Assembly: GCF_000715495.1 (NCBI RefSeq)
Contig: NZ_JNLX01000184.1
Location: forward strand, 1 to 64,000
DNA: 64,000 bases
Direction: 5' to 3'
DNA from: Hymenobacter sp. IS2118
Lineage (GTDB): Bacteria > Bacteroidota > Bacteroidia > Cytophagales > Hymenobacteraceae
The notes under the pieces are model-generated. The model did not search any database. It was not told where the DNA came from and worked only from the letters and a program-made list of their open reading frames with translations. A program made the position numbers and the translations under genes. Positions 18,073 through 57,399 of the stretch are shown here, in pieces (the stretch's first letter is position 1; each line of letters begins with the position of its first letter).

Positions 18073-18146
18073 GCTTCCTTAGCTCAGCCGGTTAGAGCAT
18101 CTGACTGTTAATCAGAGGGTCCCTGGTTCGAGCCCAGGAGGGAGCG
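18073..18146 (+). tRNA. tRNA-Asn (anticodon GTT)
   Basis: Cloverleaf fits throughout: acceptor GCTTCCT with AGGGAGC (one G-U pair), D stem GCTC/GAGC, anticodon stem TCTGA/TCAGA with loop CTGTTAA (GTT at 18107-18109), T stem CCTGG/CCAGG with loop TTCGAGC, discriminator G. No CCA is encoded. Its 3' end is the integration site of the element that follows. Confidence 0.96.
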
Positions 18147-18147
18147 C
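18135..18147 (+). other. attL core (tRNA 3' end)
   Basis: CAGGAGGGAGCGC overlaps the T arm and acceptor stem of tRNA-Asn and is repeated exactly at 50438-50450. Confidence 0.85.
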
Positions 18148-18187: not shown

Positions 18188-18275
18188 GCGTTTATGCCTT
18201 TTTGATGCCTTTAAGGCACTTTCAGGGAAATTGGTAGCTTGGAAATTCGGTCATGTTCGGTTATTTTTGGGTGTA

Positions 18276-18332: not shown

Positions 18333-19703
18333 ATGCTAGGCTCTACCCCCTATAAGAAGAAAATCAGCGTGCGGCTATACCCGCGGCTGGCGGCCACCAA
18401 CCAGAGCGGATTGTGCCCGGTACGGCTCACGGCGCGGTGGCACGGGGAGGAATTGCAGGTAGATACGGGCGAAATCATCCTGCCGCAACGGGTACGGAGT
18501 GACGGCGAGGTAGAAAAGCTTTGGCAGAGCGATTCGCAGATGGTGCTCGGTGGACGCAAGCTGACGGTGAAGGAAGAAGGAACGATGCCTACTCACCCGG
18601 ATGTGTATACCAACATCAATGCCCGCCTGGTTAATGTAGTGAAGCAGGTGACCGATACGTTCAACCGGCTCTACGATGCTGCCCCGTTTGAGAAAGTGAG
18701 CAAGGCAGCTATGCTCGCGGAGCTGCTGCCGGCCGAAGTCCGTTCGGTGACTGCGCCAGCTCCGATGAAGATGGAAGCGGCTCGCACCTTCCGGCAAGTG
18801 TTGGAAGAATGGAAGGAGGAAAACCGCAACCTGGCCAAGGACTCGCTGCGCAAGTACGACCAGCTGGCCACGATGATGGAAGTGTGGCGGCCGGAGCTCC
18901 GGCCGGGGCAGGTGACGCAGAAGGTAGCCAAAGAGTATCTACAGCACTTGCTGGACCTGCAGAAGTCGGACGCGACTATCAAGGTGCACTTTGCGGGTAT
19001 CCGAAAGTGCCTGGAGCAATTAAATCTGAAAGCAGACATGACCTGGCTGCAATACTCGGCCAAGAATGCGCCGCAGCTGGATTTGGAGATGGAGGAGGTG
19101 CGTAAGCTTATCCAGTGGCGGCCGACTTCGGAGAGCCTGGCGGAAGAGCGGGACCGGTGGCTGTTTCAGCTCTTCAGCGGGCGCCGGTATGAGGACCTGG
19201 AGAAGTTCGACAAACGCGAGCGAATAAGTCTGACGCTGGAAGATGGCAGCAAAGTGCCGGCGCTGCTGCACGCGCAGGGCAAGACGGGCAATGACGCCGC
19301 CGTGCCGCTGCCGCCTATTGCTGTAAAGATTGGGGAACGGTGGGGTTGGCACTTTCCAGCGCGCAACTGGCAGCAGCGCGGCGACTGGATTAAGGAAATT
19401 GCCAAGGGGGCGGGCCTGACCCGGGAGTGGGACGACCGGCTGATTACGGGCGGCAAGGTGGTACACAACTGGCGGCCCATCTGGCAAGTCATCAGCACCC
19501 ACACGGCGCGGCACACCGCCGGGACACTGCTTAAGCAGGTGAGCAATGGCAATAAAGCATTGGCCAAAATGGTGCTGGGGCACGCCGACGAGGATGTAAC
19601 GGACCGGTATGCTAAGGACAAGGCGCGGCTGCTGGCACCGGCGGTGCTGGATGCGTGGCGCAAAATCCTGGGTGAGTGGTACGACGGGGTGCCGGTGCGG
19701 TAG
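18333..19703 (+). CDS. Tyrosine recombinase / integrase
   Basis: About 456 residues. N-terminal arm-binding domain (KKKISVRLYPRLAATNQSGLCPVRLT), SAM-like core-binding domain (about 155-245, 'FRQVLEEWKEEN...LAKDSLRKYDQLA'), then the catalytic domain. Catalytic residues visible: Arg at 284/285 (SGRRYEDL), Lys in 'AQGKTGNDAAVPLP', H390 and R393 (HTARH), H417 (LGHADEDVTDRY) and Tyr426. It should drive integration at the tRNA-Asn 3' end. The ATG at 18333 was chosen because the upstream codons lie in attP-type DNA containing the 12-bp-spaced arm repeats. Confidence 0.94.
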   Translation: MLGSTPYKKKISVRLYPRLAATNQSGLCPVRLTARWHGEELQVDTGEIILPQRVRSDGEVEKLWQSDSQMVLGGRKLTVKEEGTMPTHPDVYTNINARLVNVVKQVTDTFNRLYDAAPFEKVSKAAMLAELLPAEVRSVTAPAPMKMEAARTFRQVLEEWKEENRNLAKDSLRKYDQLATMMEVWRPELRPGQVTQKVAKEYLQHLLDLQKSDATIKVHFAGIRKCLEQLNLKADMTWLQYSAKNAPQLDLEMEEVRKLIQWRPTSESLAEERDRWLFQLFSGRRYEDLEKFDKRERISLTLEDGSKVPALLHAQGKTGNDAAVPLPPIAVKIGERWGWHFPARNWQQRGDWIKEIAKGAGLTREWDDRLITGGKVVHNWRPIWQVISTHTARHTAGTLLKQVSNGNKALAKMVLGHADEDVTDRYAKDKARLLAPAVLDAWRKILGEWYDGVPVR

Positions 19704-19730
19704 TGCGGGGCAGCCACAGACTGGGTGCGA

Positions 19731-24829: not shown

Positions 24830-24935
24830 TGTGAAAGAAGAAAACTGTTAGAGGAAACGCAAATTAGGCAAATAAGCAGACGGCAGACGGCAGCAGCGGC
24901 GCGGGAAGTGGCTGCAGCCTGCCTCCGTCCTGCCT

Positions 24936-25151
24936 TCAGCCGCGGTTGGCTGACGCCGGCGTTCCGTTGAGGGCGGCGGCTACTTCGGCCTCCGGCAGGC
25001 AGGTGTAGGCGCAGAACTCGGCTACCGAGACGTAGGCGCGGGCGGGCTTGCGGAGCTTGATGCGGATGCGCTGTAAGAGGCGCTTGCCGGCGTCGTAGCC
25101 GGTGCCGGTGAGCTGGGCAACGTCTTTGGGGTAAAGGCAAACCTGGGGCAT
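24936..25151 (-). CDS. Small phage-associated HTH-type protein
   Basis: 71 residues from the ATG at 25151: 'MPQVCLYPKDVAQLTGTGYDAGKRLLQRIRIKLRKPARAYVSVAEFCAYTCLPEAEV'. The pattern (YxKDVAxLTG...A..LLxRIR...VSVAEFCAYTxL) is a common small helix-turn-helix-like family of Bacteroidota mobile elements, perhaps excisionase-like. The longer frame to 25223 would overlap the divergent nuclease gene, so the shorter start is preferred. A truncated copy lies at 19731-19905. Confidence 0.75.
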   Translation of the reverse strand: MPQVCLYPKDVAQLTGTGYDAGKRLLQRIRIKLRKPARAYVSVAEFCAYTCLPEAEVAAALNGTPASANRG

Positions 25152-27265: not shown

Positions 27266-27338
27266 ATTCTCGCGACACTGTCGCAAGAATTGCGCTGGCT
27301 GCAATGGGTTGGAATTTTCTCAACACTGTCGAGAGAAT
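27266..27338. promoter_or_regulatory. Two operator-like palindromes upstream of helicase copy 1
   Basis: 27266-27290 reads ATTCTCGCGACA-C-TGTCGCAAGAAT (11 of 12 positions pair). 27314-27338 reads ATTTTCTCAACA-C-TGTCGAGAGAAT (10 of 12). The centres are 48 bp apart. A copy of the second lies before helicase copy 2 (50720-50744), and a half-matching site before the LexA-like gene (43071-43093). Within 27207-27496 I see no gene. Confidence 0.65.
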
Positions 27339-27496
27339 TGTGAGATTGAACGGGCCACGCTGGTAATTGAAGTGAGCAGTAGGGGGAGCAGTAGAAGGGC
27401 CTTGTGGCTGTTAGTTTTGAAGTCAGCATCAAAATCGGGCATTCATTGCGCGTCTGGTGCGATTTTGCGTGCTCAACTGCCTAAACAAGCTACCTA

Positions 27497-30400
27497 TTGG
27501 AAACCGGCCACTACGAAACCCTCGTCACGCAACAGCTGCGGGGCCAGCTTGCTACTTTAGAAACGGCGGTTTATGCTATTGCGGAAAAGAAACTGGGGCC
27601 CGATGATGCGGCCGTGTTCATCACCCGGCACCTGACGCAACTGCTGGGCAAAGTGCTGGGGCAGCTGGCCAAGAACGAGGAGGTAGGCGAGCAGCTGGCG
27701 TTGGCCAACGAAGTCATTGCCTACTTGCAGGAAAAGTCGGACGTGCTGGCGGCGGGTAGCGACCTAGCTCCGGAAGGGCAGTTGCTGCGGGCGGTGCTGC
27801 CGCGGCTTCAGCTGCCGGTGGCCGCGCAGCACGATTTGGGCAAGCACCTCGACGGGGTAGAGCCGGCGCTGCGGTTTTCGCAAAGCGACTTGTTCAGCGG
27901 CGGCAATTCGGAGTTGTCGTTGGAAGCAGAGTTGAAGAAGGAAATTGCGACGGCCGACCGCATCGACTTCATCGTGAGTTTTGTGAAATGGAGCGGGCTG
28001 CGGTTGCTGCTGCCTTCGCTCCAGGCGTTTGCGGAGCAAGGCAAGCCGCTGCGGCTGCTCACCACTACTTATATGGGTGCCACCGACCAGAAGGCGGTGG
28101 ATGCGCTGGCGGCGTTGCCAGGGGCCGAACTGCGCATCAGCTACAACACGGCGCACGAGCGGCTGCACGCCAAGGCCTACCTATTCAGCCGCAACTCGGG
28201 CTTTGATACGGCCTACATTGGGTCGAGCAACATGAGCCGTTCGGCGCTGACCAGTGGGCTGGAGTGGAACGTGAAAGTGACGGCTCAGGACAATGTAGCG
28301 ATTTTGAACAAGTTCCGGGGCACATTTGAGACCTACTGGAATTCGCCCGAATTTGAAGAGTACAGCAGCTTGCCCGAGCAACGCCTGAAGCTGGCCCGGG
28401 CCCTGCGCCAGGAGAACAGCGGCACAGCGGAGGCCGATTCACTACCCAACTTTCGCATCCGGCCTTTTCCCTATCAGCAGGAAATCCTGGACCGGCTGGC
28501 GGTGGAGCGCAGCCTGCGGGGGCACTTCCGCAACCTGGTGGTGGCGGCCACGGGCACGGGCAAAACGGTGGTATCGGCGTTTGACTACGCCCGGTTTGCC
28601 AAGCAGTTTACCACGCTGCCGCGGCTGCTGTTTGTGGCGCACCGGGAGGAGATATTGCGGCAGGCCCGCGCCACGTTTCGGCATATTCTGGGGGAGGCCA
28701 ACTTTGGGGAATTATGGGTAGGCACGGAGCAGCCTTTGCAGTTTGAATACCTGTTTGTGTCGGTGCAGACCTTCGCGTCGCGGCTGGATTTCTTTCAGCA
28801 AACCATCCCAAGGGACTATTACCAATACCTGGTGATTGACGAGGTGCACCACCTGGCAGCGGCGTCTTACCGGCCGATTCTGGCCTGGTTTCAGCCTACT
28901 ATTCTGCTGGGACTGACCGCTACGCCGGAGCGGGCCGACGGGGAGAGCATCCTGCCAGACTTCGATAACACCATTGCGGCGGAAATTCGGCTGCCCGAAG
29001 CTATTGCGCGGGGGCTGCTGGTGCCGTTTCAGTATTTCTGCATCACTGACCCGGTGGACTACCGCAACGTGCGGTGGACTAATGGGCGCTACGCCGCCGA
29101 GGACCTGACCAACGTGTACACCGGCAACGATGTGCGGGTGAGTGCCATTGTGGGGGCGTTACAGCGCTATTTGCTGGCGCCCCACCAGGCGCGGGCGCTG
29201 GGCTTCTGCGCCACGCGAGAGCATGCCCGGCTGATGGCAGCCAAGTTCCAGGCGGCGGGCCTAAATGCTAGCTACCTGGCTAGCGGCGACACCACACCGG
29301 AGCAGCGGCGGGCGGCGGTGGCACAGCTGCGGCGCGGGGAGCTCAACTATCTGTTCGTGGTGGATATTTTCAACGAAGGCGTTGATATTCCCGAGGTGGA
29401 TACGCTGCTGTTTTTGCGGCCCACGGAAAGCCTGACGGTGTTCTTGCAACAGCTGGGCCGGGGACTGCGCCTGCACGAGAGCAAGGAGTGTTTGACGGTG
29501 CTGGACTTTGTGGGGCAGGCCCGGCAGGAATACAGCTACGAGCAGAAATTCCGGGCGCTGCTGGGCCGCACCGGCGGCTCGGTGCTGAGCGAAGCGGAAG
29601 CGGGCTTTCCGCGTCTGCCCGTGGGGTGCAGCATCCAGATGGAGCGCGAGGCCATGCGGTTTATCCTCGACAACATCCGAGCGGCCACCGGCGAAAATGT
29701 GCGGGTGCTGGAGCGACGGATACGCGGCTTCGCCTTGGAAAGCGCGCTGCCGCTCACGCTGGCCACCTTTTTGGCGCACACGCATTTTGCGCTGGTGGAC
29801 ATTTACCGTTCGCGAGGCGACCGGGGCTGGACGGCGCTGAAAGTCCGGGCAGGGGTGCTGGCCCCGCCCGAGCTGGCGGCTACGGAAAAGCAGCTGGTGG
29901 GCAGTGTCTGGCGGTTGGCGCAAGCGAACGGGCCGGCTTTTCTGGCGTTTGTTCGGCGGGTGTTTGAGGGAGTGGAAGAATTACCGCAGCTGCTACAGCT
30001 GCCGCTGGGCCCGGAAATGGGGCTGATGCTGCACTACCTGCTGTACCAGAAGCCGGGGCCTAAGCTGGAGCTGGATTCGTTGCTGGACAGCCTTGGCACG
30101 CTGCGAGCCATGCCAACCCTCACGGCGGAGGTGTTGGAGGTAGTGGACGTTTGCGAAGCGCAAATAAGCATCCCGCCTATGGCGGTGGCGCTGCCTTACC
30201 AGTGCGCACTCCAGCTACACAGCCGCTACAGCCGCGATGAAATTCTGTGCGCGTTTGGCGTGTGGACGTTTGAGCGCAATCCTTCCGTGCGCGAGGGCGT
30301 GTGCTACATCGCGCCCCTGAACACGGAACTGCTGTTCGTTACGCTCGAAAAGTCGAGCCGCAACTACTCGCCCACGACGCTCTACCACGACTATGCCATC

Positions 30401-30679
30401 AGCGACACGCTGTTTCATTGGGAGTCGCAGAACAGCACGGCGGAAGACACGCCAAAGGGTATCAGCTACATTCGGCACCAGGCCCAAGGCAAGCAGCTGT
30501 TGCTGTTTGTGCGCGAGCAAAATCAGGATGCGGCGGGGTTGACGATGCCGTATGTGTTCCTGGGGCCCGTGCGGTATGTGAGCCACAAGGGCAACCGTCC
30601 AATGGCCATTACTTGGGAGTTGGCCACGCCGTTGCCGGGGTTCTTGTGGCACGAAGCGGGAAAAATGGCTGTGGGCTAG
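27497..30679 (+). CDS. PLD-DEAD/H helicase-DUF3427 protein, copy 1
   Basis: 1060 residues. An N-terminal helical region (1-130) precedes a phospholipase-D-like nuclease domain (about 150-300, H224xK226 in 'LHAKAYLFS' followed by 'IGSSNMSRSAL'). A superfamily 2 helicase follows: Walker A around K356 (ATGTGKT), DEVH box at 448-451, helicase C motifs 'FVVDIFNEGVDIPEVDTLLFLRPTESLTVFLQQLGRGLR'. The C-terminal third is DUF3427-like, with 'YIAPLNTELLFVTL'. Such fusions are found in defence islands and are thought to bind or cut foreign nucleic acid; the substrate is unknown. A stop codon at 27482 leaves TTG at 27497 as the only plausible start. A near-identical copy lies at 50902-54084. Confidence 0.88.
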   Translation: METGHYETLVTQQLRGQLATLETAVYAIAEKKLGPDDAAVFITRHLTQLLGKVLGQLAKNEEVGEQLALANEVIAYLQEKSDVLAAGSDLAPEGQLLRAVLPRLQLPVAAQHDLGKHLDGVEPALRFSQSDLFSGGNSELSLEAELKKEIATADRIDFIVSFVKWSGLRLLLPSLQAFAEQGKPLRLLTTTYMGATDQKAVDALAALPGAELRISYNTAHERLHAKAYLFSRNSGFDTAYIGSSNMSRSALTSGLEWNVKVTAQDNVAILNKFRGTFETYWNSPEFEEYSSLPEQRLKLARALRQENSGTAEADSLPNFRIRPFPYQQEILDRLAVERSLRGHFRNLVVAATGTGKTVVSAFDYARFAKQFTTLPRLLFVAHREEILRQARATFRHILGEANFGELWVGTEQPLQFEYLFVSVQTFASRLDFFQQTIPRDYYQYLVIDEVHHLAAASYRPILAWFQPTILLGLTATPERADGESILPDFDNTIAAEIRLPEAIARGLLVPFQYFCITDPVDYRNVRWTNGRYAAEDLTNVYTGNDVRVSAIVGALQRYLLAPHQARALGFCATREHARLMAAKFQAAGLNASYLASGDTTPEQRRAAVAQLRRGELNYLFVVDIFNEGVDIPEVDTLLFLRPTESLTVFLQQLGRGLRLHESKECLTVLDFVGQARQEYSYEQKFRALLGRTGGSVLSEAEAGFPRLPVGCSIQMEREAMRFILDNIRAATGENVRVLERRIRGFALESALPLTLATFLAHTHFALVDIYRSRGDRGWTALKVRAGVLAPPELAATEKQLVGSVWRLAQANGPAFLAFVRRVFEGVEELPQLLQLPLGPEMGLMLHYLLYQKPGPKLELDSLLDSLGTLRAMPTLTAEVLEVVDVCEAQISIPPMAVALPYQCALQLHSRYSRDEILCAFGVWTFERNPSVREGVCYIAPLNTELLFVTLEKSSRNYSPTTLYHDYAISDTLFHWESQNSTAEDTPKGISYIRHQAQGKQLLLFVREQNQDAAGLTMPYVFLGPVRYVSHKGNRPMAITWELATPLPGFLWHEAGKMAVG

Positions 30680-37413: not shown

Positions 37414-37414
37414 T

Positions 37415-37422
37415 TACTTTTG
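37415..37422 (+). promoter_or_regulatory. -7 element before HNH gene 2
   Basis: TACTTTTG fits TAnnTTTG, begins 2 bp after the HNH-1 stop and ends 5 bp before the HNH-2 ATG, implying a nearly leaderless transcript. Confidence 0.5.
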
Positions 37423-37427
37423 AAAAT

Positions 37428-38363: not shown

Positions 38364-38409
38364 GCGTTGAGCATGCTGCTTTAAAGCGACACTTGGTGAT
38401 GCGAAGCAC

Positions 38410-38538
38410 TTAGCAATGTTGGGAAGCAGGAATAAGAACGGGACAATTAGCCTCGAACACGGCGCGGGCGAAGCCTACGAGCGTGGCGGTAAGATTGAAG
38501 TAGCTGATGACGAGTAGGGTGGGCGTAAAAAACGGCAT
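38410..38538 (-). pseudogene. Internally deleted copy of the DNA methylase-like gene
   Basis: A 42-residue frame whose first part 'TLLVISYFNLT' matches the start of the protein encoded at 43137-43799 (PIVISCFDFT) and whose second part 'ATLVGFARAVFEANCPVL' matches its C-terminus (ATPAGFARAVFEANQN). The whole catalytic middle is missing. It lies just downstream of the methylase/nuclease operon, on the side opposite the full gene. Confidence 0.75.
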
Positions 38539-38546
38539 GGTTGCTT

Positions 38547-39206
38547 TCAGGCCAACTGCAGTAGCAAGTGGTCGAGTTTCATCTTCCCATGAGCCAATTG
38601 ATTGGTTGACTGATAGTGCGTCGCCATCACTGCGTTGGGGGTATTGTCAATGGCTCCAATTCTCGGTCCTGCCCCCCGAAGAACTAATAAGCGGTTGATG
38701 CCCGATACGATAGATGCGACCTGGCCATTCACAATGTAACCCACCAAGCAACCTTGGGGGTAGCGCTCCGTCAGGAAGTTCTCAATGCCGGTATCAATGT
38801 AACGCCCTCGCTGTTCAGAAGCCCTCACCAGCGCCCCATCAGGCTTTTGCCAATCAAACTCGGAAAGGTTTTTAGCTTCGGCGTAGTAGTGCGTTTCGCG
38901 TGTACCGTGCCAACTGGAGAACTTGAAATCAACCTTAGGTGCGCTCAAAAAATCAGCTCCCTGATAGGTAATCTCCTCGCTAATAATCAGAGCTTGTGGG
39001 TTGACTGAAATTTGGCTGTTGTGCAGTACACGCGTGAGTTCGATAGAATCTATCAAGCAGCTTGTCAGGTTGTCTTCTTTCCAATACAGCAGGTATCGTT
39101 TGTCAGCAAGCATCCTAGTGTAGCCCACGCTTATTGCTTCCAGGCACTGCTGGATGAAACGGGCTCGAAAGCGGGCGAAAAGGGCAGAACTGATTCCCCG
39201 GCTCAT
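38547..39206 (-). CDS. PD-(D/E)XK nuclease-like protein, partner of the N6-methylase
   Basis: 219 residues. A PD-(D/E)XK-type core is visible: D93 in 'PKVDFKFSSW' and E110-x-K112 in 'THYYAEAKNLSEFDW', with helices before it and 'GCLVGYIVNGQV' strands after. Its start overlaps the stop of the large methylase gene by four bases (ATGA), so the two are co-translated. It is likely the cleavage subunit of a restriction-modification-like or related defence unit. No close named family recognised. Confidence 0.75.
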   Translation of the reverse strand: MSRGISSALFARFRARFIQQCLEAISVGYTRMLADKRYLLYWKEDNLTSCLIDSIELTRVLHNSQISVNPQALIISEEITYQGADFLSAPKVDFKFSSWHGTRETHYYAEAKNLSEFDWQKPDGALVRASEQRGRYIDTGIENFLTERYPQGCLVGYIVNGQVASIVSGINRLLVLRGAGPRIGAIDNTPNAVMATHYQSTNQLAHGKMKLDHLLLQLA

Positions 39207-42200: not shown

Positions 42201-42292
42201 TGCAAGGCCGTTAGGTTGGCCCGGTCGCTGCGTCGGTCGATGAGGCCATCCTTAAAACCGAGTTGGTCAACAACGGATAAGTAGGTGGTCAT
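39203..42292 (-). CDS. Large N6-adenine DNA methylase (type IIG/Eco57I-like)
   Basis: 1029 residues. Helical N-terminal region (1-330), then a gamma-class amino-methyltransferase domain: SAM-binding motif I 'LDPTCGSGIFLVDTLNRLLD' near residue 359, 'NIFGIEIKAEAIKVAAFSIYLAMLD', and catalytic motif IV 'DLVVGNPPF' near residue 477. The C-terminal half resembles target-recognition and specificity regions ('KVMWPITKPALYRSPHLLVKEG', 'LKLLTAYLNSSFAAYLMFL'). It modifies adenine in a specific site. No nuclease motif is obvious at its own N-terminus; the next gene supplies one. Coupled on both sides by four-base overlaps, with the LexA-like gene first. More AT-rich than the surrounding genes. Confidence 0.88.
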   Translation of the reverse strand: MTTYLSVVDQLGFKDGLIDRRSDRANLTALQRHYLKQADRFSADATGADGVDKIYFSGEQPAIYFKAVTDFLPETVKTVVRLQRKVWNQGKVPFLYVESPTEVRVYNCYETPKSPTDTQAEKELQLFHASVEAQAALQELYEVFGKIAIESGAFWEEEKYAKQVQSKTRVNEQLAANLKTTRQLLRVAGLDVSIIHDLLLRSLFILYLEDRKATTPEFYRQYHPTADSYFKVLTDKNATYALFEKLETVFNGNLCPVAPNEREMVTPEHLTALRACFYTELPTAQQVLFPDWRIFDFEVIPIQLISEIYEDFLRQEDGAEHMKEIGAFYTPHALAEFVLNEVLPYPSSGNARYDIRTLDPTCGSGIFLVDTLNRLLDRWEFTHPSKTLSFDTVQQLVLDNIFGIEIKAEAIKVAAFSIYLAMLDRLNPKTLWHEVHFPYLIYRPGNTDSKRQGQNLFLMSSLEAGPFEELTFDLVVGNPPFTNKPSADVKAYLKPLKFASEMVLAFLHRATVLCPDGQIALIATSKILFNNHSTSKNFRRFLFNDTYVEKVYNFSALRRVAKKTGGRNLFASAQRPVCVLVYRKQQPTAVSSHLVYYTPTTTVKNRLIDGIAIDPIDVKHLPRTECQNPATNIWKIAMWGTERDFRLIEQLTRRPSLDTYLTREGYVKAVGFETSRTKAKNKHPSDILASMPFIDAQGLDRYYTPKSYTADNARDKVTGLPITKVMWPITKPALYRSPHLLVKEGQSDKNFCASYLDYDCSFRRTIYGISAPGKDEDLKLLTAYLNSSFAAYLMFLTASDWGVERERVSPGEMLNIPSLCFDLPTATKERIVALVDEIIGLRKHLLKPTIELNRAEQAIETLLRDGLNLSATDRLLIDSVLKYRLGAFRDRSKSDAFAPSVEAERCDYAALLCQTINQFLQAEDLQASAAYFTLAPKTPLQVVALYLDGRPATAPVTELPAADLGELLRRIEAHTYHEKAESIYYRRFIKYYVADTVYLVKPNEKRFWSPASALNDADEVIAEILAEMA

Positions 42293-48981: not shown

Positions 48982-49314
48982 ATGCCCCAGGCGGAAGTAC
49001 ACATGCACGACCAGGTAGCGGGCTACCTGAAGCAGGATGAGCAGGGCTACAGCTTTGCTTACGCACCGGAATATCTTGCGGCACCCACTGCAGAGCCGGT
49101 GAGCCTGACGCTGCCGTTACAGGAGCAGCCCTACGTGGAGCGGGTGCTCTTTCCCTTCTTCGACGGGCTGATTCCCGAAGGGTGGCTGCTGGACGTGGCC
49201 GAGCGGAACTGGAAGCTCAACGTCCGCGACCGGATGGGGCTGCTGTTGGCCTGCTGCCAGGACTGCATTGGTGCTGTAAGCATCCATCCACTTCCTAACG
49301 CTGACGACGTATGA
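48982..49314 (+). CDS. hipS: HipS-like protein (separate HipA N-terminal subdomain)
   Basis: 110 residues, matching only the N-terminal subdomain of HipA: 'GYLKQDEQGYSFAYAPEYLAAPTAEPVSLTLPLQEQPYVERVLFPFFDGLIPEGWLL' and 'DRMGLLLACCQDCIGAVSI'. In the tripartite HipBST systems this small protein, not HipB, is the antitoxin for the kinase. Gene order B-S-T and a four-base overlap with the kinase gene match that system. Often annotated as a HipA N-terminal domain protein. Confidence 0.87.
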   Translation: MPQAEVHMHDQVAGYLKQDEQGYSFAYAPEYLAAPTAEPVSLTLPLQEQPYVERVLFPFFDGLIPEGWLLDVAERNWKLNVRDRMGLLLACCQDCIGAVSIHPLPNADDV

Positions 49315-50258
49315 GCCGCTGCTTATACTGCTACCAGCAGCTGGCAGCTGGCCAGTTGGACTATCACCCGGCTTGCAGCCGCAAGCTGTTCGGGCAGGCA
49401 ATACCGCCGGCTTTTCCTTACTCGGAAGCGCAGATGCTGGGTTTGGCGGAAAAAATTGTGAGCCAGCACATGACGGTGACGGGTGTGCAGCCCAAGCTGT
49501 CGTTGTCCTTGTTATCCGGCAGCGCTACTGATGGGCCCGCCCGGCTGACCATCGTAGGGGCTCTGGGTGGCGAGTATATCCTGAAACCGCCGACCTCGCG
49601 CTACCCCCACCTGCCGGAAGTAGAAGATGCCACCATGCACCTGGCCGAGGTAGCTCGCATCGCCACTGTGCCGCACGGGCTGCTGCGGCTAGAGGATGGG
49701 GCGCTGGCTTACGTGACGCGGCGCATTGACCGCCGAAAAGGGAAGAAGCTGCACATGGAAGATATGTGCCAGCTGACCAAGCGGCTGACCGAAAACAAGT
49801 ACGACGGCTCTCACGAACAGATAGCCAAAGCTCTGCGCTACTCCACTAATCCCGGCCTGGACGTGGTGAATTTCTACGAGCTGGTACTGTTTAGCTTCCT
49901 GACCGGCAACGCTGATATGCACCTGAAAAACTTCTCGCTGCTGCACACTCCTGGCCTGGGCTACGGGCTGGCCCCGGCCTACGACCTGGTGGCCACGGCG
50001 CTGGTGAATCCGGCCGACAAGGAAGAGCTGGCTCTCACGTTGAACGGTAAAAAGAGGAAGCTGCGGCAGGAGGATTTCCGCGTAGCAGGCCAAAGTGCTG
50101 GAATTGGCGAAAAGGTGATGACGGGGCTGTTCGCCAATTTTATCCGCGTCCGGCCAGCCTGGGAAAAGCTGCTGGCAGAAAGCTTCTTACCGCCGGAGTT
50201 GAAAGAGGCTTACGTGTCGCTGCTGCAACGTAAATTTGAGCAGCTGGGCTTGACGTAG
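49311..50258 (+). CDS. hipT: HipT-like serine/threonine kinase toxin
   Basis: 315 residues. It begins with a small zinc-finger-like segment (CLYCYQQL...YHPACSRKLFG). The kinase core follows: P-loop-like 'MTVTGVQPKLSLSL' (55-68), lysine in 'GEYILKPP', catalytic 'GNADMHLKNFSLL' (N200, D202) and metal-binding D225 in 'APAYDLVATA'. HipT of E. coli phosphorylates Trp-tRNA synthetase; the target here is unknown. The two positions that are the SIS/SID/DIS autophosphorylation serines in known HipT proteins appear as TVT (55-57). Last gene before attR. Confidence 0.9.
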   Translation: MSRCLYCYQQLAAGQLDYHPACSRKLFGQAIPPAFPYSEAQMLGLAEKIVSQHMTVTGVQPKLSLSLLSGSATDGPARLTIVGALGGEYILKPPTSRYPHLPEVEDATMHLAEVARIATVPHGLLRLEDGALAYVTRRIDRRKGKKLHMEDMCQLTKRLTENKYDGSHEQIAKALRYSTNPGLDVVNFYELVLFSFLTGNADMHLKNFSLLHTPGLGYGLAPAYDLVATALVNPADKEELALTLNGKKRKLRQEDFRVAGQSAGIGEKVMTGLFANFIRVRPAWEKLLAESFLPPELKEAYVSLLQRKFEQLGLT

Positions 50259-50336: not shown

Positions 50337-50386
50337 GGGAACACAAAACCGGGACACAACCTGATTCCGGGACATAAACCGGGACA
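50337..50386 (+). promoter_or_regulatory. Probable integrase arm-type sites (right)
   Basis: GGGACA at 50351, 50369 and 50381 (spacings 18 and 12), with a weaker GGGAACA at 50338, in (A)CCGGGACAYAA context like the left array at 18276-18314. The gap 50259-50437 shows no gene. Confidence 0.65.
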
Positions 50387-50437
50387 AAATCGACCTGAAA
50401 ACCGCGTTTTTGAGTGCGTTAGGGCATACGGCGGTCT

Positions 50438-50450
50438 CAGGAGGGAGCGC
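50438..50450 (+). other. attR core
   Basis: Exact copy of CAGGAGGGAGCGC from the 3' end of tRNA-Asn. The sequence to its left does not continue the tRNA, so this is the right junction of the element. Confidence 0.85.
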
Positions 50451-50459
50451 CAACAGCCA

Positions 50460-50487
50460 GAATGCCCGCCCTTACCGGCGGGCATTC
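50460..50487 (+). terminator. Hairpin downstream of attR
   Basis: GAATGCCCGCC (50460-50470) pairs with GGCGGGCATTC (50477-50487). Same stem as the tRNA terminator at 18158-18187, so it was probably the tRNA-Asn terminator before the element inserted. Confidence 0.8.
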
Positions 50488-50577
50488 TTCGTTTCCAGGC
50501 CATGCAGGTGCATTTGGCGTTTGGTAATTCGGTTAAATTTGGATTGGACCGGGACACAAACCGGTACGGTCAATCTA

Positions 50578-50690
50578 ATGCGGCTCCCGACCTTTACAAG
50601 CGCACCACTAGCATATCGTTTTACCTGCGGAAGGCTGCAACAGGTGCGGGCACTGCCCAATTGGGATTAACCTACGCTGGTATAGGCAGG
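50578..50690 (+). pseudogene. Truncated integrase N-terminus of a second element
   Basis: The frame reads 'APDLYKRTTSISFYLRKAATGAGTAQLGLTYAG', matching the arm-binding domain start of tyrosine integrases (compare 'STPYKKKISVRLYPRLAATNQSGLCPVRL' of the intact integrase). The TAATG at 50577 lines up with the intact start but is in a different frame. It ends where the helicase upstream region begins. One GGGACA motif (50551) lies just before it, as in the intact element. Confidence 0.62.
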
Positions 50691-50719
50691 AATTGCGCTG
50701 GCTGCACGCGTGGCCTGAG

Positions 50720-50744
50720 ATTTTTTCAACACTGTCGAGAGAAT
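50720..50744. promoter_or_regulatory. Operator-like palindrome upstream of helicase copy 2
   Basis: ATTTTTTCAACA-C-TGTCGAGAGAAT, matching the second palindrome of copy 1 (27314-27338). The first palindrome of copy 1 is missing here. The gap 50691-50901 otherwise shows only sequence similar to that upstream of copy 1. Confidence 0.6.
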
Positions 50745-50901
50745 TGAGGACTGAACGGGCCACCTTGATAAACAAAGTGAGCAGTAGGGGCAGCGGTAGA
50801 AGGGCCTTGTGGCTGTTAGTTTTGGATTCAGCATCAAAATCGGGCATTCGTTGCGCGTCGGGTGCGATTTTGCGTGCTCAATTGCCTAAACAAGCTACCC
50901 A

Positions 50902-53900
50902 TTGGAAACCGGCCATTACGAAACCCTCGTCACGCAGCAGCTGCGGGGCCAGCTTGCTACTTTAGAGACGGCGGTTTATGCCATTGCGGAGAAGGAACTG
51001 GGAGCCGATGATGCCGCTGTGTTTATCACGCGGCACCTGACGCAGCTGCTGGGTAGCGTGCTGGGGCAGCTGGCTAAGAACGAGGAGGTAGGCGAGCAGC
51101 TGGCGCTGGCTAACGGGATAATTGCCTACCTGCAGGAAAGGTCGGATGTGTTGGCGGCGGGCAGCCACTTGGCGCCGGAAGGACAGCTGTTGCGGGCGGT
51201 GCTGCCGCGGCTGCCGCTGCCGCTGGCGGCGCAGCACGACTTGGGTAAGCACCTCGATGGGATAGAGCCGGCGCTGCGGTTTTCACAAAGTGACCTGTTC
51301 AGCGGGGGCAATTCGGAGTTGTCGTTGGAAGCCGAGTTGAAAAAGGAAATTGCGACGGCCGACCGTATCGACTTTATCGTGAGTTTTGTGAAGTGGAGCG
51401 GGCTGCGGTTGCTGCTGCCTTCGCTCCAGGCGTTTGCCCAGCAGGGCAAGCCGCTGCGGCTGCTTACGACCACCTACATGGGCGCCACCGACCAGAAGGC
51501 GGTGGATGCGCTGGCCGCGCTGCCGGGGGCCGAACTGCGCATCAGCTACAACACGGCGCACGAGCGGCTGCACGCCAAGGCCTACCTGTTCAGCCGCAAC
51601 TCGGGCTTTGATACGGCCTACATTGGGTCGAGCAATATGAGCCGTTCGGCGCTGACCAGTGGGCTGGAGTGGAACGTGAAAGTGACGGCGCAGGACAATG
51701 CAGCGATTTTGAACAAGTTCCGGGGCACGTTTGAGACCTACTGGAACTCGTCGGAATTTGAAGAGTACAGCAGCTTGCCCGAGCAGCGGCTGAAGTTGGC
51801 CCGGGCCCTGCGCCAGGAGAATAGCGGCACGGCGGAGGCCGATTCACTACCCAATTTCCGCATCCGGCCGTTTCCCTATCAGCAGGAAATTCTGGACCGG
51901 TTGGCGGTGGAAAGAAGCCTGCGGGGACACTTCCGCAACCTGGTGGTGGCGGCGACGGGCACGGGGAAAACGGTGGTGTCGGCGTTTGACTACGCCCGGT
52001 TTGCCAAGCAGTTTACCACGCTGCCGCGGCTGTTGTTTGTAGCGCACCGGGAGGAGATTTTGCGGCAGGCCCGCGCCACGTTTCGGCACATTCTGGGGGA
52101 GGCCAACTTTGGGGAATTGTGGGTGGGCACCGAGCAGCCGATACAATTTGACTACCTGTTCGTGTCGGTGCAAACCTTCGCGTCGCGGCTGGATTTCTTT
52201 CAGCAGACCATCCCGCGCGACTACTACCAGTACCTGGTGATTGACGAGGTGCACCACCTGGCAGCGGCTTCGTACCGGCCGATTCTGGCGTGGTTTCAGC
52301 CCACTATTCTGCTGGGGCTGACGGCTACCCCAGAGCGGGCCGACGGGGAAAGCATCCTGCCGGACTTCGATAACACCATTGCGGCAGAAATCCGCTTGCC
52401 CGAAGCCATTGCGCGCGGGCTGTTGGTGCCGTTTCAATACTTCTGCATCACCGACCCCGTGGACTACCGCAACGTACGGTGGACCAATGGGCGCTACGCC
52501 GCCGAGGACCTGACCAACGTGTACACCGGCAATGATGTACGGGTGAGTGCCATCGTGGGCGCGTTGCAACGCTATTTGCTGGCGCCTCACCAGGCGCGGG
52601 CGCTGGGCTTCTGCGCCACGCGGGAGCATGCGCGGCTGATGGCGGCCAAGTTCCAGGCGGCAGGACTGAAGGCCAGCTACCTGGCCAGCGGTGACACCAC
52701 GCCGGAGCAGCGGCGGGCGGCGGTGGCGCAGCTGCGGCGCGGGGAACTCAACTACCTGTTCGTGGTAGACATTTTCAACGAGGGGGTTGATATTCCTGAG
52801 GTGGATACGCTGCTGTTTTTGCGGCCGACGGAAAGCCTGACGGTGTTCCTGCAGCAACTGGGCCGGGGACTGCGCCTGCACGAGAGCAAGGAATGCTTGA
52901 CGGTGCTGGACTTCGTGGGACAGGCCCGGCAGGAATACAGCTACGAGCAGAAGTTTCGGGCGCTGCTGGGCCGTACCGGCGGCTCGGTGCTGAGCGAAGC
53001 AGAAGCAGGCTTTCCGCGGCTGCCCGTGGGGTGCAGCATCCAGATGGAGCGCGAGGCCATGAAATTCATTCTCGACAACATCCGGGCGGCCACCGGTGAG
53101 AATGTGCGGGTGCTGGAGCGGCGGATACGGGGCTTCGCCCTAGAAAGCGCGTTGCCGCTCACGCTGGCTACCTTTTTGGCGCACACGCATTTTGCGCTGG
53201 TGGATATTTACCGTTCGCGCGGTGACCGGGGCTGGACGGCACTGAAAGTCCGGGCGGGGGTGCTGGCCCCTCCGGAGCTGGCGGCCACGGAAAAGCAGTT
53301 GGTGGGTAGCGTTTGGCGGTTGGCGCAAGCCAACGGGCCCGCTTTTCTGGCGTTTGTGCGGCGGGTATTTGAGGCGGCGGAAGATTTGGCCGAGCTGCTG
53401 AAGCTCCCGCTGGGCCCGGAAATGGGGCTAATGCTGCACTACCTGCTGTACCAAAAGCCGGGGCCCAAGCTGGAACTGGATTCGTTGCAGGACAGCCTGG
53501 CCACGCTGCGGACCATGCCGACCCTTACAGCGGAGGTACTGGAGGTGTTGGACGTCTGCGAAGCGCAAATAAGCATCCCGCCCATGGCGGTGGCGCTGCC
53601 TTACCCGTGCGCACTGCAGCTTCACAGCCGCTACAGCCGCGATGAAATCCTGTGCGCGTTTGGCGTGTGGACGTTTGAGCGCAATCAGTCCGTGCGCGAG
53701 GGCGTCTGCTACATCGCGCCCCTGAACACGGAACTGCTGTTCGTCACGCTCCAAAAGACCAGCCGCAACTACTCGCCCACTACGCTCTACCACGACTATG
53801 CCATCAGCGACACGCTGTTTCATTGGGAGTCGCAAAACAGCACGGCGGAAGACACGCCCAAGGGCCTCAGCTACATTCGGCACCAGGCGCAAGGGAAGCA

Positions 53901-54084
53901 GCTGTTGCTGTTTGTGCGCGAGCAGAATCAGGATGCGGCGGGGTTGACGATGCCGTATGTGTTCCTGGGGCCCGTGCGGTACGTCAGCCATAAGGGTAAC
54001 CGGCCCATGGCCATTACCTGGGAGTTGGCGACGCCGCTGCCGGGGTTCCTGTGGCACGAGGCGGGCAAGATGGCCGTGGGGTAG
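50902..54084 (+). CDS. PLD-DEAD/H helicase-DUF3427 protein, copy 2
   Basis: 1060 residues, same architecture as copy 1: PLD nuclease domain with HxK (LHAKAYLFS), Walker A (ATGTGKT), DEVH box, helicase C motifs and DUF3427-like C-terminus, all intact. About 40 residues differ by eye, mostly conservative and with one cluster around residue 825 (FEAAEDLAELLKL against FEGVEELPQLLQL). Silent differences are far more frequent, so the copies are not a recent duplication and both appear maintained. The same TTG start context (ATTGGAAACCGG) is kept. It lies outside attR, behind a truncated integrase. Confidence 0.88.
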   Translation: METGHYETLVTQQLRGQLATLETAVYAIAEKELGADDAAVFITRHLTQLLGSVLGQLAKNEEVGEQLALANGIIAYLQERSDVLAAGSHLAPEGQLLRAVLPRLPLPLAAQHDLGKHLDGIEPALRFSQSDLFSGGNSELSLEAELKKEIATADRIDFIVSFVKWSGLRLLLPSLQAFAQQGKPLRLLTTTYMGATDQKAVDALAALPGAELRISYNTAHERLHAKAYLFSRNSGFDTAYIGSSNMSRSALTSGLEWNVKVTAQDNAAILNKFRGTFETYWNSSEFEEYSSLPEQRLKLARALRQENSGTAEADSLPNFRIRPFPYQQEILDRLAVERSLRGHFRNLVVAATGTGKTVVSAFDYARFAKQFTTLPRLLFVAHREEILRQARATFRHILGEANFGELWVGTEQPIQFDYLFVSVQTFASRLDFFQQTIPRDYYQYLVIDEVHHLAAASYRPILAWFQPTILLGLTATPERADGESILPDFDNTIAAEIRLPEAIARGLLVPFQYFCITDPVDYRNVRWTNGRYAAEDLTNVYTGNDVRVSAIVGALQRYLLAPHQARALGFCATREHARLMAAKFQAAGLKASYLASGDTTPEQRRAAVAQLRRGELNYLFVVDIFNEGVDIPEVDTLLFLRPTESLTVFLQQLGRGLRLHESKECLTVLDFVGQARQEYSYEQKFRALLGRTGGSVLSEAEAGFPRLPVGCSIQMEREAMKFILDNIRAATGENVRVLERRIRGFALESALPLTLATFLAHTHFALVDIYRSRGDRGWTALKVRAGVLAPPELAATEKQLVGSVWRLAQANGPAFLAFVRRVFEAAEDLAELLKLPLGPEMGLMLHYLLYQKPGPKLELDSLQDSLATLRTMPTLTAEVLEVLDVCEAQISIPPMAVALPYPCALQLHSRYSRDEILCAFGVWTFERNQSVREGVCYIAPLNTELLFVTLQKTSRNYSPTTLYHDYAISDTLFHWESQNSTAEDTPKGLSYIRHQAQGKQLLLFVREQNQDAAGLTMPYVFLGPVRYVSHKGNRPMAITWELATPLPGFLWHEAGKMAVG

Positions 54085-54548
54085 GCTGCGCAGCCAGTGG
54101 TTCCCTACGTGGTAAAACGCCTAGGGCAGACACGAAAAAGCTCCATTGAAATGGTGTTATATGTTCGGATGAGCTTTCGGTTAGGGAAGCGCTGAACAGC
54201 TTTACCACAAATGGAACCAGCTTGCCCCGTGGGCTTTCCGGTTCCCGCAGTGCTTGCCGCCCCACCGCTGGCCGTCAGGCCATTGAAGAAAACGGCGAAG
54301 CTAGCCGCATGCTTCCACAAATACGAGTTAGTTGCCAAAAGGGCCAGTGACCTCTGTTTGCATCACTTTTTCATTCCAGTTGGTTTTTTCCTGGCAGGGG
54401 CGCATAAAAGGGTAATGCTTTTGAAGCAGCATTTCCTTACTATGCAAGTGGGGCGAGGCTTACCCGTTGTGTCAGGCCCGAAGGCTTGTGCAGGACTTGT
54501 CAAAGCTGTTTTGCCGAGTGGGCGGGGAGCTGAAAGCCTGGAAAACGC
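54085..54548. other. Intergenic stretch without a recognisable gene
   Basis: No frame here looks coding; the longest rightward frame runs on into the oppositely oriented M36 gene and lacks any motif. No second copy of the 13-bp att core is visible, so the right end of the second element remnant is not marked. Confidence 0.5.
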
Positions 54549-54550
54549 AC

Positions 54551-54582
54551 AAAAAAAGCCCGGCCGAGGCCGGGCTTTTTTA
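54551..54582. terminator. Bidirectional terminator
   Basis: GCCCGGCC (54558-54565) pairs with GGCCGGGC (54568-54575), flanked by A7 and T6. It serves the leftward M36 gene ending at 54604, and possibly rightward transcripts. Confidence 0.92.
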
Positions 54583-54603
54583 ACAGAAATACTTCTTCTA
54601 GGC

Positions 54604-57399
54604 TTAGCGCTGAATGCTAACCTTCGTGCTCATGGTGCCTTCGCTGCTCGTAACCCGAACCACGTAGATACCGGAAGCCAGTTGGCTGGTGTTGAGGGCT
54701 ACGCCGTTTTGGCGCATCTGCGCAGCTGGTACGGAAATGGTCCGCATGACAACCTTGCCCAGCAAATCGAGCACGGTTACCTGCATGGGAACCACGCTGT
54801 TTAGCTGGGTGCGCACCGTGAGCAGGTCCTGAGCAGGGTTCGGGTAAGCTTCCAGAGCGCCACGGGTAACGATGCCGTTCTTGTTCGACAATACAATCGG
54901 ACGAGTGCCGGGGGGCAGGTCAAATCCTTGTACCACACCCCCAACGGTTGGCACGCCATTCACACGGGGGCCCTGTACGGCGTTGAAGCCCATACCCCGG
55001 CGCGCGAATACGTTCCAAATCAGGTCGGCATTGGCGGCACGGTTGGTTACGGAGTCGGCACGTAGGATGGCGTCACGACCGTCGAGGAAACCAGGGTTGC
55101 AGACTTGCAGCTTGCAGCCGTCAAGCACCAGTTTCAGCATCTTGTTGTTGCCGCCGGCAGCTACCATAAAGTCTTCGTTGTAGCCATATTTGCTGATGAA
55201 CTGCCAGTTCAAATCCCAGAGTACGGTGGCCCAAACTTCGCCCACATCGTGAGTTGCCTGAGACTGACCGGCTCCGGTACCGAGTTGGCCGTAGGTGTAG
55301 TTGTTCTTGGCGAAATCTGTGGTGTAAGGCTTGCCACGGAAGCCGGGGCCTACGCCAAATGGTTCGCCGCTGTCGTAGGCAGCGATGTAGCGGTTTGTGC
55401 GGCCATCGTCGCCGGGGCGCGTGGTCATCCACAACGCGAAGAAGTCGCTCCAGCCTTCGCCCATGGTTTGGTTGCCGGTGGTGTTGTCGAGGCAGCTGGA
55501 GTTGGCTGGGCCGCCGGTGAGGCGGTTGGAAATACCGTGACCGAATTCGTGCGAAACCACGCCGTTGTCGAAAGCTCCGTCGAAATCCGGCCCCACCGTT
55601 GCGCTCCCCGACGCCACCCCGCCAGCTAACAGAGCAGCCCGCAGGCGTTCCCCATCAACCCCGCTGATGCCGATTGCGGGAATGGTAACGGTAGCATCCG
55701 TGCCACCTGGGCTTATCGGTGCCGTAGATGCCGGATTTGAGTCGTAAATAATTGCCCCAATGGCGCCGTTGAGCTGCGCATTTTTAACTTTATCGACAAA
55801 GGCGTTGCTGGCAGGAGCAGCACAGCCGCCGCGCTTAATCAAGGCTATTTTACCTTGCATGGCAGCCGCGTTCACGTAGGGCGTGGCGCAGGAGCTAACG
55901 CCGCCATCGGGCGAAACGCCATCGTTTACCAGCACAATATCACCGATGAAACCACTGGTAAGCGTCCGGACGGCCGGGCCGAAGGCAGCCGTGCCGAACT
56001 TGATAACACCGGCAACACTGGCCGGAGCCGTAATGGTGAGGTTGTTGAGTGCCCGGTTATCGAACAGGTACATCTGCATCCGGCCGGAGCTGCCGTCCGG
56101 CGGCGTCGAGAAGTTAGCGTTGTTGCGTCCGCTACCGTCCTGGGTTTCGGCTCGCACAAAGTCGTTGCCTGCGCCCTTATTGGTGATGTTCTTGTACTGG
56201 AAGTTGCCCGAAACCTCGTCAAACCCCTTGCTCATCATCACATCGTGGAGCATGTTGTTCCAGTAGAACAGGTTGGTGGTGCCGGCCGCCAGGTTGCCGG
56301 GGTCGCGGGGACCCTTCGTCTGGTCGAAAGGATAATCAAAGTCGCGGGCCGCGCCGCCATCCGGGGAGGTAATAGTAGAGTTCAGGTCGCCATTGCCCGA
56401 CGTGGGGGTGCCATTGTCGTCGTAAGCGGCCACGTTGTTGCCGCGGGTGAGCTGCTTGCCGCTCGAAAGCAGCGAGTAGGTATCGGCGAAAAAGCCGGTT
56501 GGGGCTTTGGGGTCGCCCACTTGCCAGCCGTAAGGCGAATACAGTGGGTTCGTCGAGCTGAAGGGGACAATCACGCGGGGCGAAACGTCAGGGCTCTCAA
56601 ACGGCACGGGAATCACCGTCATGCTATTGGGGGCACCCAGTGTGCCTTTCGCACCTGCCGTCTTGCGCGGAGCCGCCGCCTGGGCCGTGGCCAGCGGCTG
56701 CCGCCGGGCCTGGCTTTGCATAACGTGCTCCTGGAAAGTCGCGCGCTCACTCACCATGTAGTCGTTGCGGTCGACCAAGCGGCCAGTTTGCGCGTCCACG
56801 CGGGCATTCCAGCTGTGCTGCTGGTCGAGCTGCGCGATGGACACGTTCCAGACCAGCACCAGCTTGTCCTCCACGCGTACGTACATCAGGCGCACAGGAA
56901 TGTTATCCTCCGAAATGCCGCCTCGGTTGAACACAATACCATCGGCGGCCCGGCCTTCCACCACGCGCTGTAGCGATACGGGGCTGGGGAGCTTCAGGGC
57001 CCTGGCTGCTGCGCCCACGGCCTGCTCGGCGCTGAGAGTTGGCGTTGCCGAGGGGGCCACGGCTGCCGCGTTGGCCAGGAAATCCTGGGTAACGAGTACC
57101 ACTTTACCGCTTTGGTCGGTGTGCACGGCGCCGGTGGCGTTGAACACCGTCAAGCCGTTCACCCGCTGCTGCAGGTAGGTGTGCGTGAGGCCCGTGCTGC
57201 TGTCGAAGTACGAGCTGCTGACCACGGGATTGGCTACGTCGGCCGCGCTCAGGCGGCTTTGCGCCTTGGCTTTGGCCGAAAACGAGGCCAGCGCCTGCGC
57301 CGCAGGCGTGGCTTGCTGAGCGGAGGCCAGGACTGGCAGGGCCAGCGCGAGAGCCAGGGCCAGCTTGCCGTAGCTGGAAGGAGTAGGATTAAATGTCAT
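54604..57399 (-). CDS. Secreted M36 (fungalysin-like) metalloprotease with T9SS sorting domain
   Basis: About 931 residues. Signal peptide (KLALALALALPVLASAQQ), an FTP/propeptide region (about 40-240), a catalytic domain with a PA insert (about 500-620, 'KIALIKRGGCAAPASNAFVDKVKNAQLNGAIGAIIYD') and the zinc site 'VVSHEFGHGISNRLTGG'. The glutamate ligand is in 'MGEGWSDFFALWM'. The C-terminal 85 residues (AYPNPAQDLLTV...GIYVVRVTSSEGTMSTKVSIQR) are a type A T9SS sorting domain, so it is secreted or held at the surface. The ATG at 57399 was chosen because the signal peptide starts there. Confidence 0.93.
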   Translation of the reverse strand: MTFNPTPSSYGKLALALALALPVLASAQQATPAAQALASFSAKAKAQSRLSAADVANPVVSSSYFDSSTGLTHTYLQQRVNGLTVFNATGAVHTDQSGKVVLVTQDFLANAAAVAPSATPTLSAEQAVGAAARALKLPSPVSLQRVVEGRAADGIVFNRGGISEDNIPVRLMYVRVEDKLVLVWNVSIAQLDQQHSWNARVDAQTGRLVDRNDYMVSERATFQEHVMQSQARRQPLATAQAAAPRKTAGAKGTLGAPNSMTVIPVPFESPDVSPRVIVPFSSTNPLYSPYGWQVGDPKAPTGFFADTYSLLSSGKQLTRGNNVAAYDDNGTPTSGNGDLNSTITSPDGGAARDFDYPFDQTKGPRDPGNLAAGTTNLFYWNNMLHDVMMSKGFDEVSGNFQYKNITNKGAGNDFVRAETQDGSGRNNANFSTPPDGSSGRMQMYLFDNRALNNLTITAPASVAGVIKFGTAAFGPAVRTLTSGFIGDIVLVNDGVSPDGGVSSCATPYVNAAAMQGKIALIKRGGCAAPASNAFVDKVKNAQLNGAIGAIIYDSNPASTAPISPGGTDATVTIPAIGISGVDGERLRAALLAGGVASGSATVGPDFDGAFDNGVVSHEFGHGISNRLTGGPANSSCLDNTTGNQTMGEGWSDFFALWMTTRPGDDGRTNRYIAAYDSGEPFGVGPGFRGKPYTTDFAKNNYTYGQLGTGAGQSQATHDVGEVWATVLWDLNWQFISKYGYNEDFMVAAGGNNKMLKLVLDGCKLQVCNPGFLDGRDAILRADSVTNRAANADLIWNVFARRGMGFNAVQGPRVNGVPTVGGVVQGFDLPPGTRPIVLSNKNGIVTRGALEAYPNPAQDLLTVRTQLNSVVPMQVTVLDLLGKVVMRTISVPAAQMRQNGVALNTSQLASGIYVVRVTSSEGTMSTKVSIQR

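What the first reader, a model, noticed from the sequence alone, without database searches (positions are those of the whole stretch)
50438..54084. Remnant of a second element in tandem at the same tRNA-Asn site
Beyond attR lie, in order, the tRNA-type hairpin (50460-50487), one GGGACA arm-type motif in ACCGGGACACAAAC context (50551), a frameshifted integrase N-terminus (50578-50690) and the PLD-helicase. That is the layout of the left end of the intact element with the integrase mostly deleted. It suggests repeated integration of related elements, with only the helicase kept.
Basis: partly seen in the sequence, partly recalled or inferred. Interest (0 to 1): 0.75.

Follow-up and report, generated by a model that had tools for sequence, protein, structure and literature searches.

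The report
Decayed second element behind tRNA-Asn
Right behind a 32-kb mobile element parked at a tRNA gene of a Hymenobacter bacterium lies the wreck of an older related element, stripped down to its left end, a scrap of its integrase and one intact gene for a DNA-cutting defence enzyme; this is a clear but familiar example of mobile elements piling up at one site.

Summary
A profile of seven element left ends (remnant excluded) matches 50438-50696 at E 2.1e-33; its integrase part alone gives E 1.4e-12, 42.7 bits against 6.1 for the best of 1000 shuffles. The hairpin alone is not diagnostic. The integrase scrap ends at GAATTGC (50690-50696), which is also part of the 'helicase' upstream region: probably an internal deletion at a microhomology. 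The kept gene is a SauUSI-like type IV restriction enzyme. The intact element carries its own copy (97% aa, dS 0.36), but the tree rejects an exclusive pairing of the two (AU p 0.005), so they arrived separately. In G034 (empty site) and G029 (occupied) chromosome, not element, follows the tRNA or the attR. Here the far att site and the first 0.9-1.4 kb of that chromosome are not found, which leaves the enzyme stranded. Of 24 non-tRNA att cores examined, two are followed by such a left end; the other (G010) is an independent parallel. Decay plus tandem accretion is described for ICEs and IMEs. New case of a known kind, modest interest.

The parts
18073..18147 (+). tRNA-Asn (GTT), the integration target
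   Evidence: ARAGORN
18135..18147 (+). att core CAGGAGGGAGCGC, left copy, inside the tRNA
   Evidence: the core is in 119 of 120 genus genomes, the reversed control pattern in 2 of 120
18333..19703 (+). full-length tyrosine integrase of the intact element E1 (456 aa)
   Evidence: PHROG integrase 5.1e-20, weak Pfam matches below cut-off; relatives
27283..30679 (+). upstream region and gene (27497-30679) of E1's own SauUSI-like enzyme, homologous to 50686-54084
   Evidence: 91.4% over 3400 bp; dS 0.358
50438..50450 (+). att core, second copy: right end of E1 and left end of the remnant
50461..50486 (+). tRNA-type terminator hairpin
   Evidence: not diagnostic alone
50548..50561 (+). arm-type motif ACCGGGACACAAAC
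   Evidence: CCGGGACA occurs 7 times on the + strand of the window, 6 of them at element ends and one inside the integrase gene, none on the - strand
50590..50696 (+). decayed integrase N-terminus (to about codon 41; no start codon, 4-base gap)
   Evidence: nhmmer E 1.4e-12; alignment
50690..50696 (+). GAATTGC, shared by the integrase and by the enzyme's upstream region: likely deletion junction
50686..50901 (+). upstream region of the kept gene, 88% identical to 27283-27496
50902..54084 (+). intact SauUSI-like type IV restriction enzyme (1060 aa, TTG start): PLD nuclease, SF2 ATPase, DUF3427
54085..54301 (.). 217 bp of no recognised origin between the gene's stop codon and the first chromosomal match
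   Evidence: one weak match (G097, E 1.6e-4); no att core within 3 mismatches in 54001-54620
54302..54431 (-). fragment of a chromosomal glyoxalase-family gene; first recognisable chromosome right of the remnant
   Evidence: 75-81% to G034 and G033; the G034 gene is Pfam Glyoxalase_7

Best explanation
An integrative element (E2) of the same integrase family as the neighbour, but of a different lineage, first inserted at the 3' end of tRNA-Asn. A deletion at a 7-bp microhomology (GAATTGC) then joined about codon 41 of its integrase to a point about 200 bp upstream of its SauUSI-like gene. Another loss removed what lay right of that gene's stop codon, with E2's right att site and the first 0.9-1.4 kb of chromosome. 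The present 32-kb element (E1) inserted at the intact att core in the tRNA, so that the E2 remnant now lies behind E1's attR. The remnant cannot excise by itself (no integrase, no second att core found), but its restriction gene is whole and has evolved under purifying selection; it probably still makes an ATP-dependent nuclease that cuts incoming DNA with modified cytosines. Shown: anatomy, homology, separate ancestry of the two enzyme copies, intact motifs. Inferred: order of events, deletion mechanism, expression and activity.
For: Left-end profile E 2.1e-33 at 50438-50696 and integrase-only E 1.4e-12; shuffles far below. The integrase scrap is nearest to G029's (66% over 117 columns, against 45-57% for the other 14 left ends and 55% for E1). 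The two enzyme copies: dS 0.358, dN/dS 0.043; E1's copy pairs with H. artigasi's and the clade E1+remnant is rejected, AU p 0.0046. In G034 tRNA-Asn is followed by chromosome; in G029 the attR is followed by DNA that shares about 1.1 kb at 78% with it. Private codon changes of the remnant copy: 48 silent, 4 replacing; E1's copy 46/4. Independent parallel in G010.
Against: The complete arrangement is seen in one genome only. No right att site of E2 is visible, so a whole E2 at this place is inferred. The integrase scrap is only 107 bp. The core-to-integrase distance, extrapolated, is about 140 bp, shorter than the 167-208 bp of the 23 genomes measured; an indel in the arm region would explain it. 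Most of the selection signal on the enzyme may predate the decay. A 7-bp overlap could be coincidence. The order E2 then E1 rests on E1 being whole and E2 broken.
Confidence: 0.92

Rival explanations
1. The segment is a partial duplication of E1 itself inside this genome (left end plus helicase gene).
For: Same gene, same orientation, 97% aa identity.
Against: dS 0.358 between the copies, within the 0.22-0.59 range of all pairs compared; E1's copy is sister to the H. artigasi copy and the duplication clade is rejected (AU p 0.0046); the integrase scrap is 55% identical to E1's integrase but 66% to G029's; no identical run longer than 62 bp between the copies.
Confidence: 0.03
2. The 'helicase' and its upstream DNA are ordinary chromosome of this lineage that merely lies next to the tRNA, and the integrase-like stretch is chance.
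For: The hairpin also occurs at tRNA-Asn sites without this integrase behind them. Two of the 11 copies of the gene (G074, G110) have no tRNA and no family integrase in the 40 and 60 kb fetched around them.
Against: E 1.4e-12 for the integrase part alone; the gene is in only 10 of 120 genus genomes, and 7 of its 11 copies lie in integrase-bearing elements at the tRNA-Asn core; the sites in G034, G029 and G033 lack it.
Confidence: 0.02
3. The core at 50438 is not the end of E1: one composite element runs from 18147 to about 54.1 kb, and the remnant travels as its right arm.
For: Transfer of whole accreted composites is described for ICEs and IMEs (PMC5704250, passages). No sister strain was available to test.
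Against: H. artigasi carries nearly the same E1 and its match to the window ends at the same core; the DNA behind that core matches the left-end profile no further than position 54. No att core within 3 mismatches in 54001-54620.
Confidence: 0.03

Closest known systems
Tandem accretion of integrative elements and CIMEs (decayed ICE/IME with flanking att sites)
   Same: Integration, decay with loss of integration genes, then insertion of another element at the same att site, giving a tandem (review PMC5704250, passages read).
   Different: A CIME keeps both att sites; here the right att site is not found, so the remnant is stranded.
SauUSI, type IV restriction enzyme of Staphylococcus aureus (PDB 7clg; PMC7913695, passages read)
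   Same: PLD nuclease, SF2 ATPase and C-terminal domain in one chain; best sequence and fold match.
   Different: About a quarter identical; about 100 more residues at the N-terminus (residue 148 aligns with SauUSI 46); the acidic residue of the HxK(x)4E motif is serine (S231); recognition site unknown.
Defence islands of E. coli at tRNA hotspots, including integrase-only islands (PMC10121019, passages read)
   Same: Variable defence cargo in integrase-bearing elements at a tRNA locus.
   Different: Different host phylum; here a tandem of which one partner is a remnant.

Membership tests
Tandem-accreted element remnant at a tRNA gene | Shared att core at both junctions | tested here: met
   13 of 13 bases at 18135 and 50438
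Tandem-accreted element remnant at a tRNA gene | Left-end structure and integrase homology right of the attR | tested here: met
   E 2.1e-33 and 1.4e-12; 2 of 24 non-tRNA cores examined have it
Tandem-accreted element remnant at a tRNA gene | Absent from empty sites of relatives | tested here: met
   G034 empty; G029 and G033 have chromosome behind the attR; one genome per species only
CIME (cis-mobilizable element) | Both att sites kept | tested here: not met
   No core within 3 mismatches in 54001-54620
SauUSI-like type IV restriction enzymes | PLD nuclease with HxK motif, then SF2 ATPase motifs | tested here: met
   H224xK226, GSSN, ATGTGKT, DEVH, QQLGRGLR in both copies; PADLOC mREase_IV 3.4e-229
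SauUSI-like type IV restriction enzymes | Acidic residue of HxK(x)4E | tested here: not met
   Serine at 231 in both copies; whether other members of the PADLOC family differ too was not tested
SauUSI-like type IV restriction enzymes | SRA-fold C-terminal recognition domain | tested here: inconclusive
   DUF3427 at 904-1053; weak sequence match to the SauUSI C-terminus (i-E 0.094); structural alignment reaches model residue 1056 / chain 953 but with rmsd 13.5
SauUSI-like type IV restriction enzymes | Cuts only cytosine-modified DNA | not testable with these tools
   needs a biochemical assay

The most novel reading that the evidence does not exclude
Decay behind a tRNA att site is a route by which a mobile modification-dependent restriction gene becomes a fixed chromosomal gene: the remnant enzyme is kept by selection for the host's own benefit, while mobile elements that bring another copy come and go in front of it. 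The two copies could then have diverged in recognition site.
Probability: 0.15. Interest if true: 0.45.

Novelty: new member of a known kind. Interest (0 to 1): 0.3.

Why it matters
It is a well-resolved example of how a defence gene can be left behind in a chromosome when its carrier decays, with an empty site, a sister element and a parallel remnant for comparison. It also documents an integration hotspot behind tRNA-Asn in Hymenobacter, where 24 of 120 genomes hold a near full-length integrase of this family.

Tried and rejected
Pairwise MAFFT of the two left ends and a single-protein tblastn (E 0.055) were too weak to settle the integrase scrap; self-BLAST of the window gave only the core and hairpin (18135-18193 with 50438-50494, E 4.5e-5). 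Profiles were needed.

The hairpin as an element mark was rejected (see observation check).

Gene conversion between the two enzyme copies: not seen (longest identical run 62 bp).

A degenerate right att site: the only candidate within 4 mismatches of 13 lies at 54391 inside the glyoxalase fragment, not credible. The 217 bp at 54085-54301 were not identified; one weak hit in G097 was not followed.

The search with 54087-54606 gave mostly matches to a common terminator stem near 54548-54581 and its list was cut; it is used only for the 54302-54431 matches.

Structure: mean pLDDT 72, pTM 0.42, residues 21-140 unreliable; used only to support SauUSI as the top match. VIA-align warns that parts outside 318-720 are barely tested.

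Literature: searches on Hymenobacter with 'integrative' (12 of 87 papers listed) and on tRNA-Asn tandem remnants (12 of 116 listed) showed nothing on this locus in the titles and abstract starts that I saw. Searches were for background on SauUSI, accretion and defence islands. So I saw no report of this site, which is no proof that none exists.

Dropped before counts: the tree and dN/dS set leaves out 1 of the 11 enzyme genes, the interrupted copy of G066 (L010). Of the 24 integrase genomes, G119 was left out of the spacing count because its cores were cut from the list. Not every non-tRNA core was fetched (for example those of G028, G031, G089, G095, G119 and the G033 and G029 ones on further contigs were not), so '2 of 24' is a count of those I held.
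Full report
What was checked. The window lies on contig 184 of a 5.26-Mb genome. In order the window holds FtsY, a 3-hydroxyacyl-CoA dehydrogenase, tRNA-Asn (18073-18147), a 32-kb element E1 with a full-length tyrosine integrase (18333-19703), the att core again at 50438, then the finding, then a glyoxalase gene fragment and an M36 peptidase.

The left end. I aligned seven left ends behind tRNA-Asn (E1's own and six others, the remnant excluded; one of the seven integrases, that of G068, carries stops). With E1's left end masked, the profile found 50438-50696 at E 2.1e-33; the other hits were the unmasked tail of E1's left end and, at E 1.9e-4, the arm-motif stretch 50346-50393 at E1's right end. 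The integrase portion alone hits 50590-50696 at E 1.4e-12; the next best place in the window has E 0.36. Of 1000 dinucleotide shuffles of 50570-50720 the best scored 6.1 bits against 42.7. The scrap lacks a start codon, has a 4-base gap, and deviates at 6 of 38 columns that are invariant in 15 left ends (three of these 15 integrases, G068, G096 and G082, have stops or a frame break); left out one at a time, those 15 deviate at 0 to 5 columns. Its nearest relative is the G029 integrase (66%); the other 14 give 45-57%, E1's 55%. Extrapolated, the integrase would have begun about 140 bp from the core, against 167-208 bp in the 23 genomes measured.

The junction. The integrase match stops at 50696. 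The upstream region of the enzyme gene, shared with 27283 onwards, begins at 50686. GAATTGC (50690-50696) belongs to both. E1 and the H. artigasi element go on sharing sequence further upstream where the remnant does not, so this is a true junction, most simply a deletion at a microhomology.

The kept gene. It is not merely a helicase. Pfam gives PLDc_2, ResIII, Helicase_C and DUF3427; PADLOC gives type IV methyl-directed restriction enzyme at 3.4e-229; the best PDB sequence match by far is 7clg, SauUSI (1.6e-84; next 3.2e-23), also the top fold match (Foldseek 2.9e-43 against 2.7e-17 for the next entry; Z 22.5 over 582 residues at rmsd 13.5, next row 18.3; model pTM only 0.42). SauUSI's domain layout and motif are from passages of PMC7913695. 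Both window copies have H224-x-K226, GSSN, Walker A, DEVH and QQLGRGLR (motif VI by recall), but serine where SauUSI has the glutamate of HxK(x)4E.

Two copies, two arrivals. E1 holds its own copy at 27497-30679: 97.0% aa, 91.7% nt, dN 0.016, dS 0.358. In a tree of 10 of the 11 Hymenobacter genes (the interrupted G066 copy left out), E1's copy pairs with H. artigasi's (95/96) and the remnant's copy stands outside; holding the two window copies together is rejected (AU p 0.0046). The test was asked after the tree had been seen. The remnant copy has 48 silent and 4 replacing private codon changes, against 46/4, 47/6, 80/8 and 61/12 in the other four of the five copies compared. So it has been under constraint, although part of that branch may predate the decay.

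Comparison with relatives. G034 is an empty site: tRNA-Asn, its terminator, then chromosome up to the M36 gene; no match to this integrase in that stretch. In G029 the attR is followed by DNA that shares about 1.1 kb at 78% with G034, and G033 likewise in parts at 70-75%; in both the tRNA and the attR lie on different contigs. In H. artigasi, which carries nearly the same E1, the match ends at the same core, and the DNA behind it matches the left-end profile no further than position 54. In the window only 54302-54431 of this chromosomal flank is recognised left of the M36 gene's own terminator. The matching piece starts 860 bp (G033), 1008 bp (G029) and 1416 bp (G034) behind the core or tRNA, so the loss on the right took E2's right end, its att site and about 0.9-1.4 kb of chromosome, if the window's lineage once had the same flank.

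The hotspot. The core occurs in 119 of 120 genus genomes; the reversed control pattern occurs once each in 2. Twenty-four of the 120 hold a near full-length integrase of the family (376 residues or more of 456, 57% identity or more). In the 23 whose core was listed the integrase starts 167-208 bp from the core, and 15 of these 23 have a further core on the same contig and strand 10.9 to 57 kb away. I examined 24 att cores outside a tRNA, the window's and 23 others that I held. In 23 of 24 the profile matches from the core onward, to varying length; two matches run on past position 126, the window's remnant (to 299) and G010's (to 175), while the next longest stop at 126 (G023) and 124 (G004). 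G010 has attR, left end, then integrase residues 268-441 with the N-terminal part lost: the same kind of wreck, made by a different deletion. G021 has three cores in a row.

Spread of the enzyme. It is in 10 of 120 genomes at E 1e-200 or better, 11 genes; only this genome has two. Seven of the 11 are in integrase-bearing elements at the tRNA-Asn core (E1, G009, G003, G020, G084, G023, G066; for G066 the tRNA itself was not in the DNA fetched, only core and integrase), one is the remnant, one (G096) is on a short contig and undecided, two (G074, G110) have no tRNA and no family integrase in the 40 and 60 kb fetched.

Mechanism and rivals. The best account is: insertion of E2, internal and right-hand deletions, insertion of E1 at the core in the tRNA. 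The order is inferred. In-genome duplication is rejected by the tree, chance by the statistics, and a single composite element is unlikely because H. artigasi's E1 ends at the same core. The tandem-and-decay process is stated in the review PMC5704250 (passages), and defence cargo at tRNA hotspots in PMC10121019 (passages).

Verdict. This is an instructive but ordinary new case of a known process; the twist is that the survivor is an intact modification-dependent restriction gene, by family, that duplicates one carried by the element in front of it.

Noticed in passing
window 19722-19897 and 24905-25092: A diverged direct repeat (73%) flanks about 5 kb of cargo, including a glycosyl-hydrolase-like gene (20985-22880), right after the integrase; H. 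artigasi (L005) has both copies, H. cyanobacteriorum (L007) only one. It looks like a cargo slot inside the element.
   Followed up: partly
L174 634-1338 (G010): Independent remnant: attR, element left end and integrase residues 268-441 with the N-terminal part deleted; a gene with a partial Phage_integrase match (2e-7) lies just in front of that attR.
   Followed up: yes
L009 6913-7017: A scrap of integrase C-terminus (35 aa, 57%) lies inside the BT190 element behind its full-length integrase.
   Followed up: no
G021 contig 13, 222466-279847: Three att cores in a row on one strand, with two integrases only distantly alike (77% and 32% to E1's): two elements in tandem.
   Followed up: partly
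window 36418-42292: E1 carries further defence-like genes: two adjacent HNH_2 proteins and a type IIG restriction-methylase-like protein; a HipA-type pair sits at 48982-50258.
   Followed up: no
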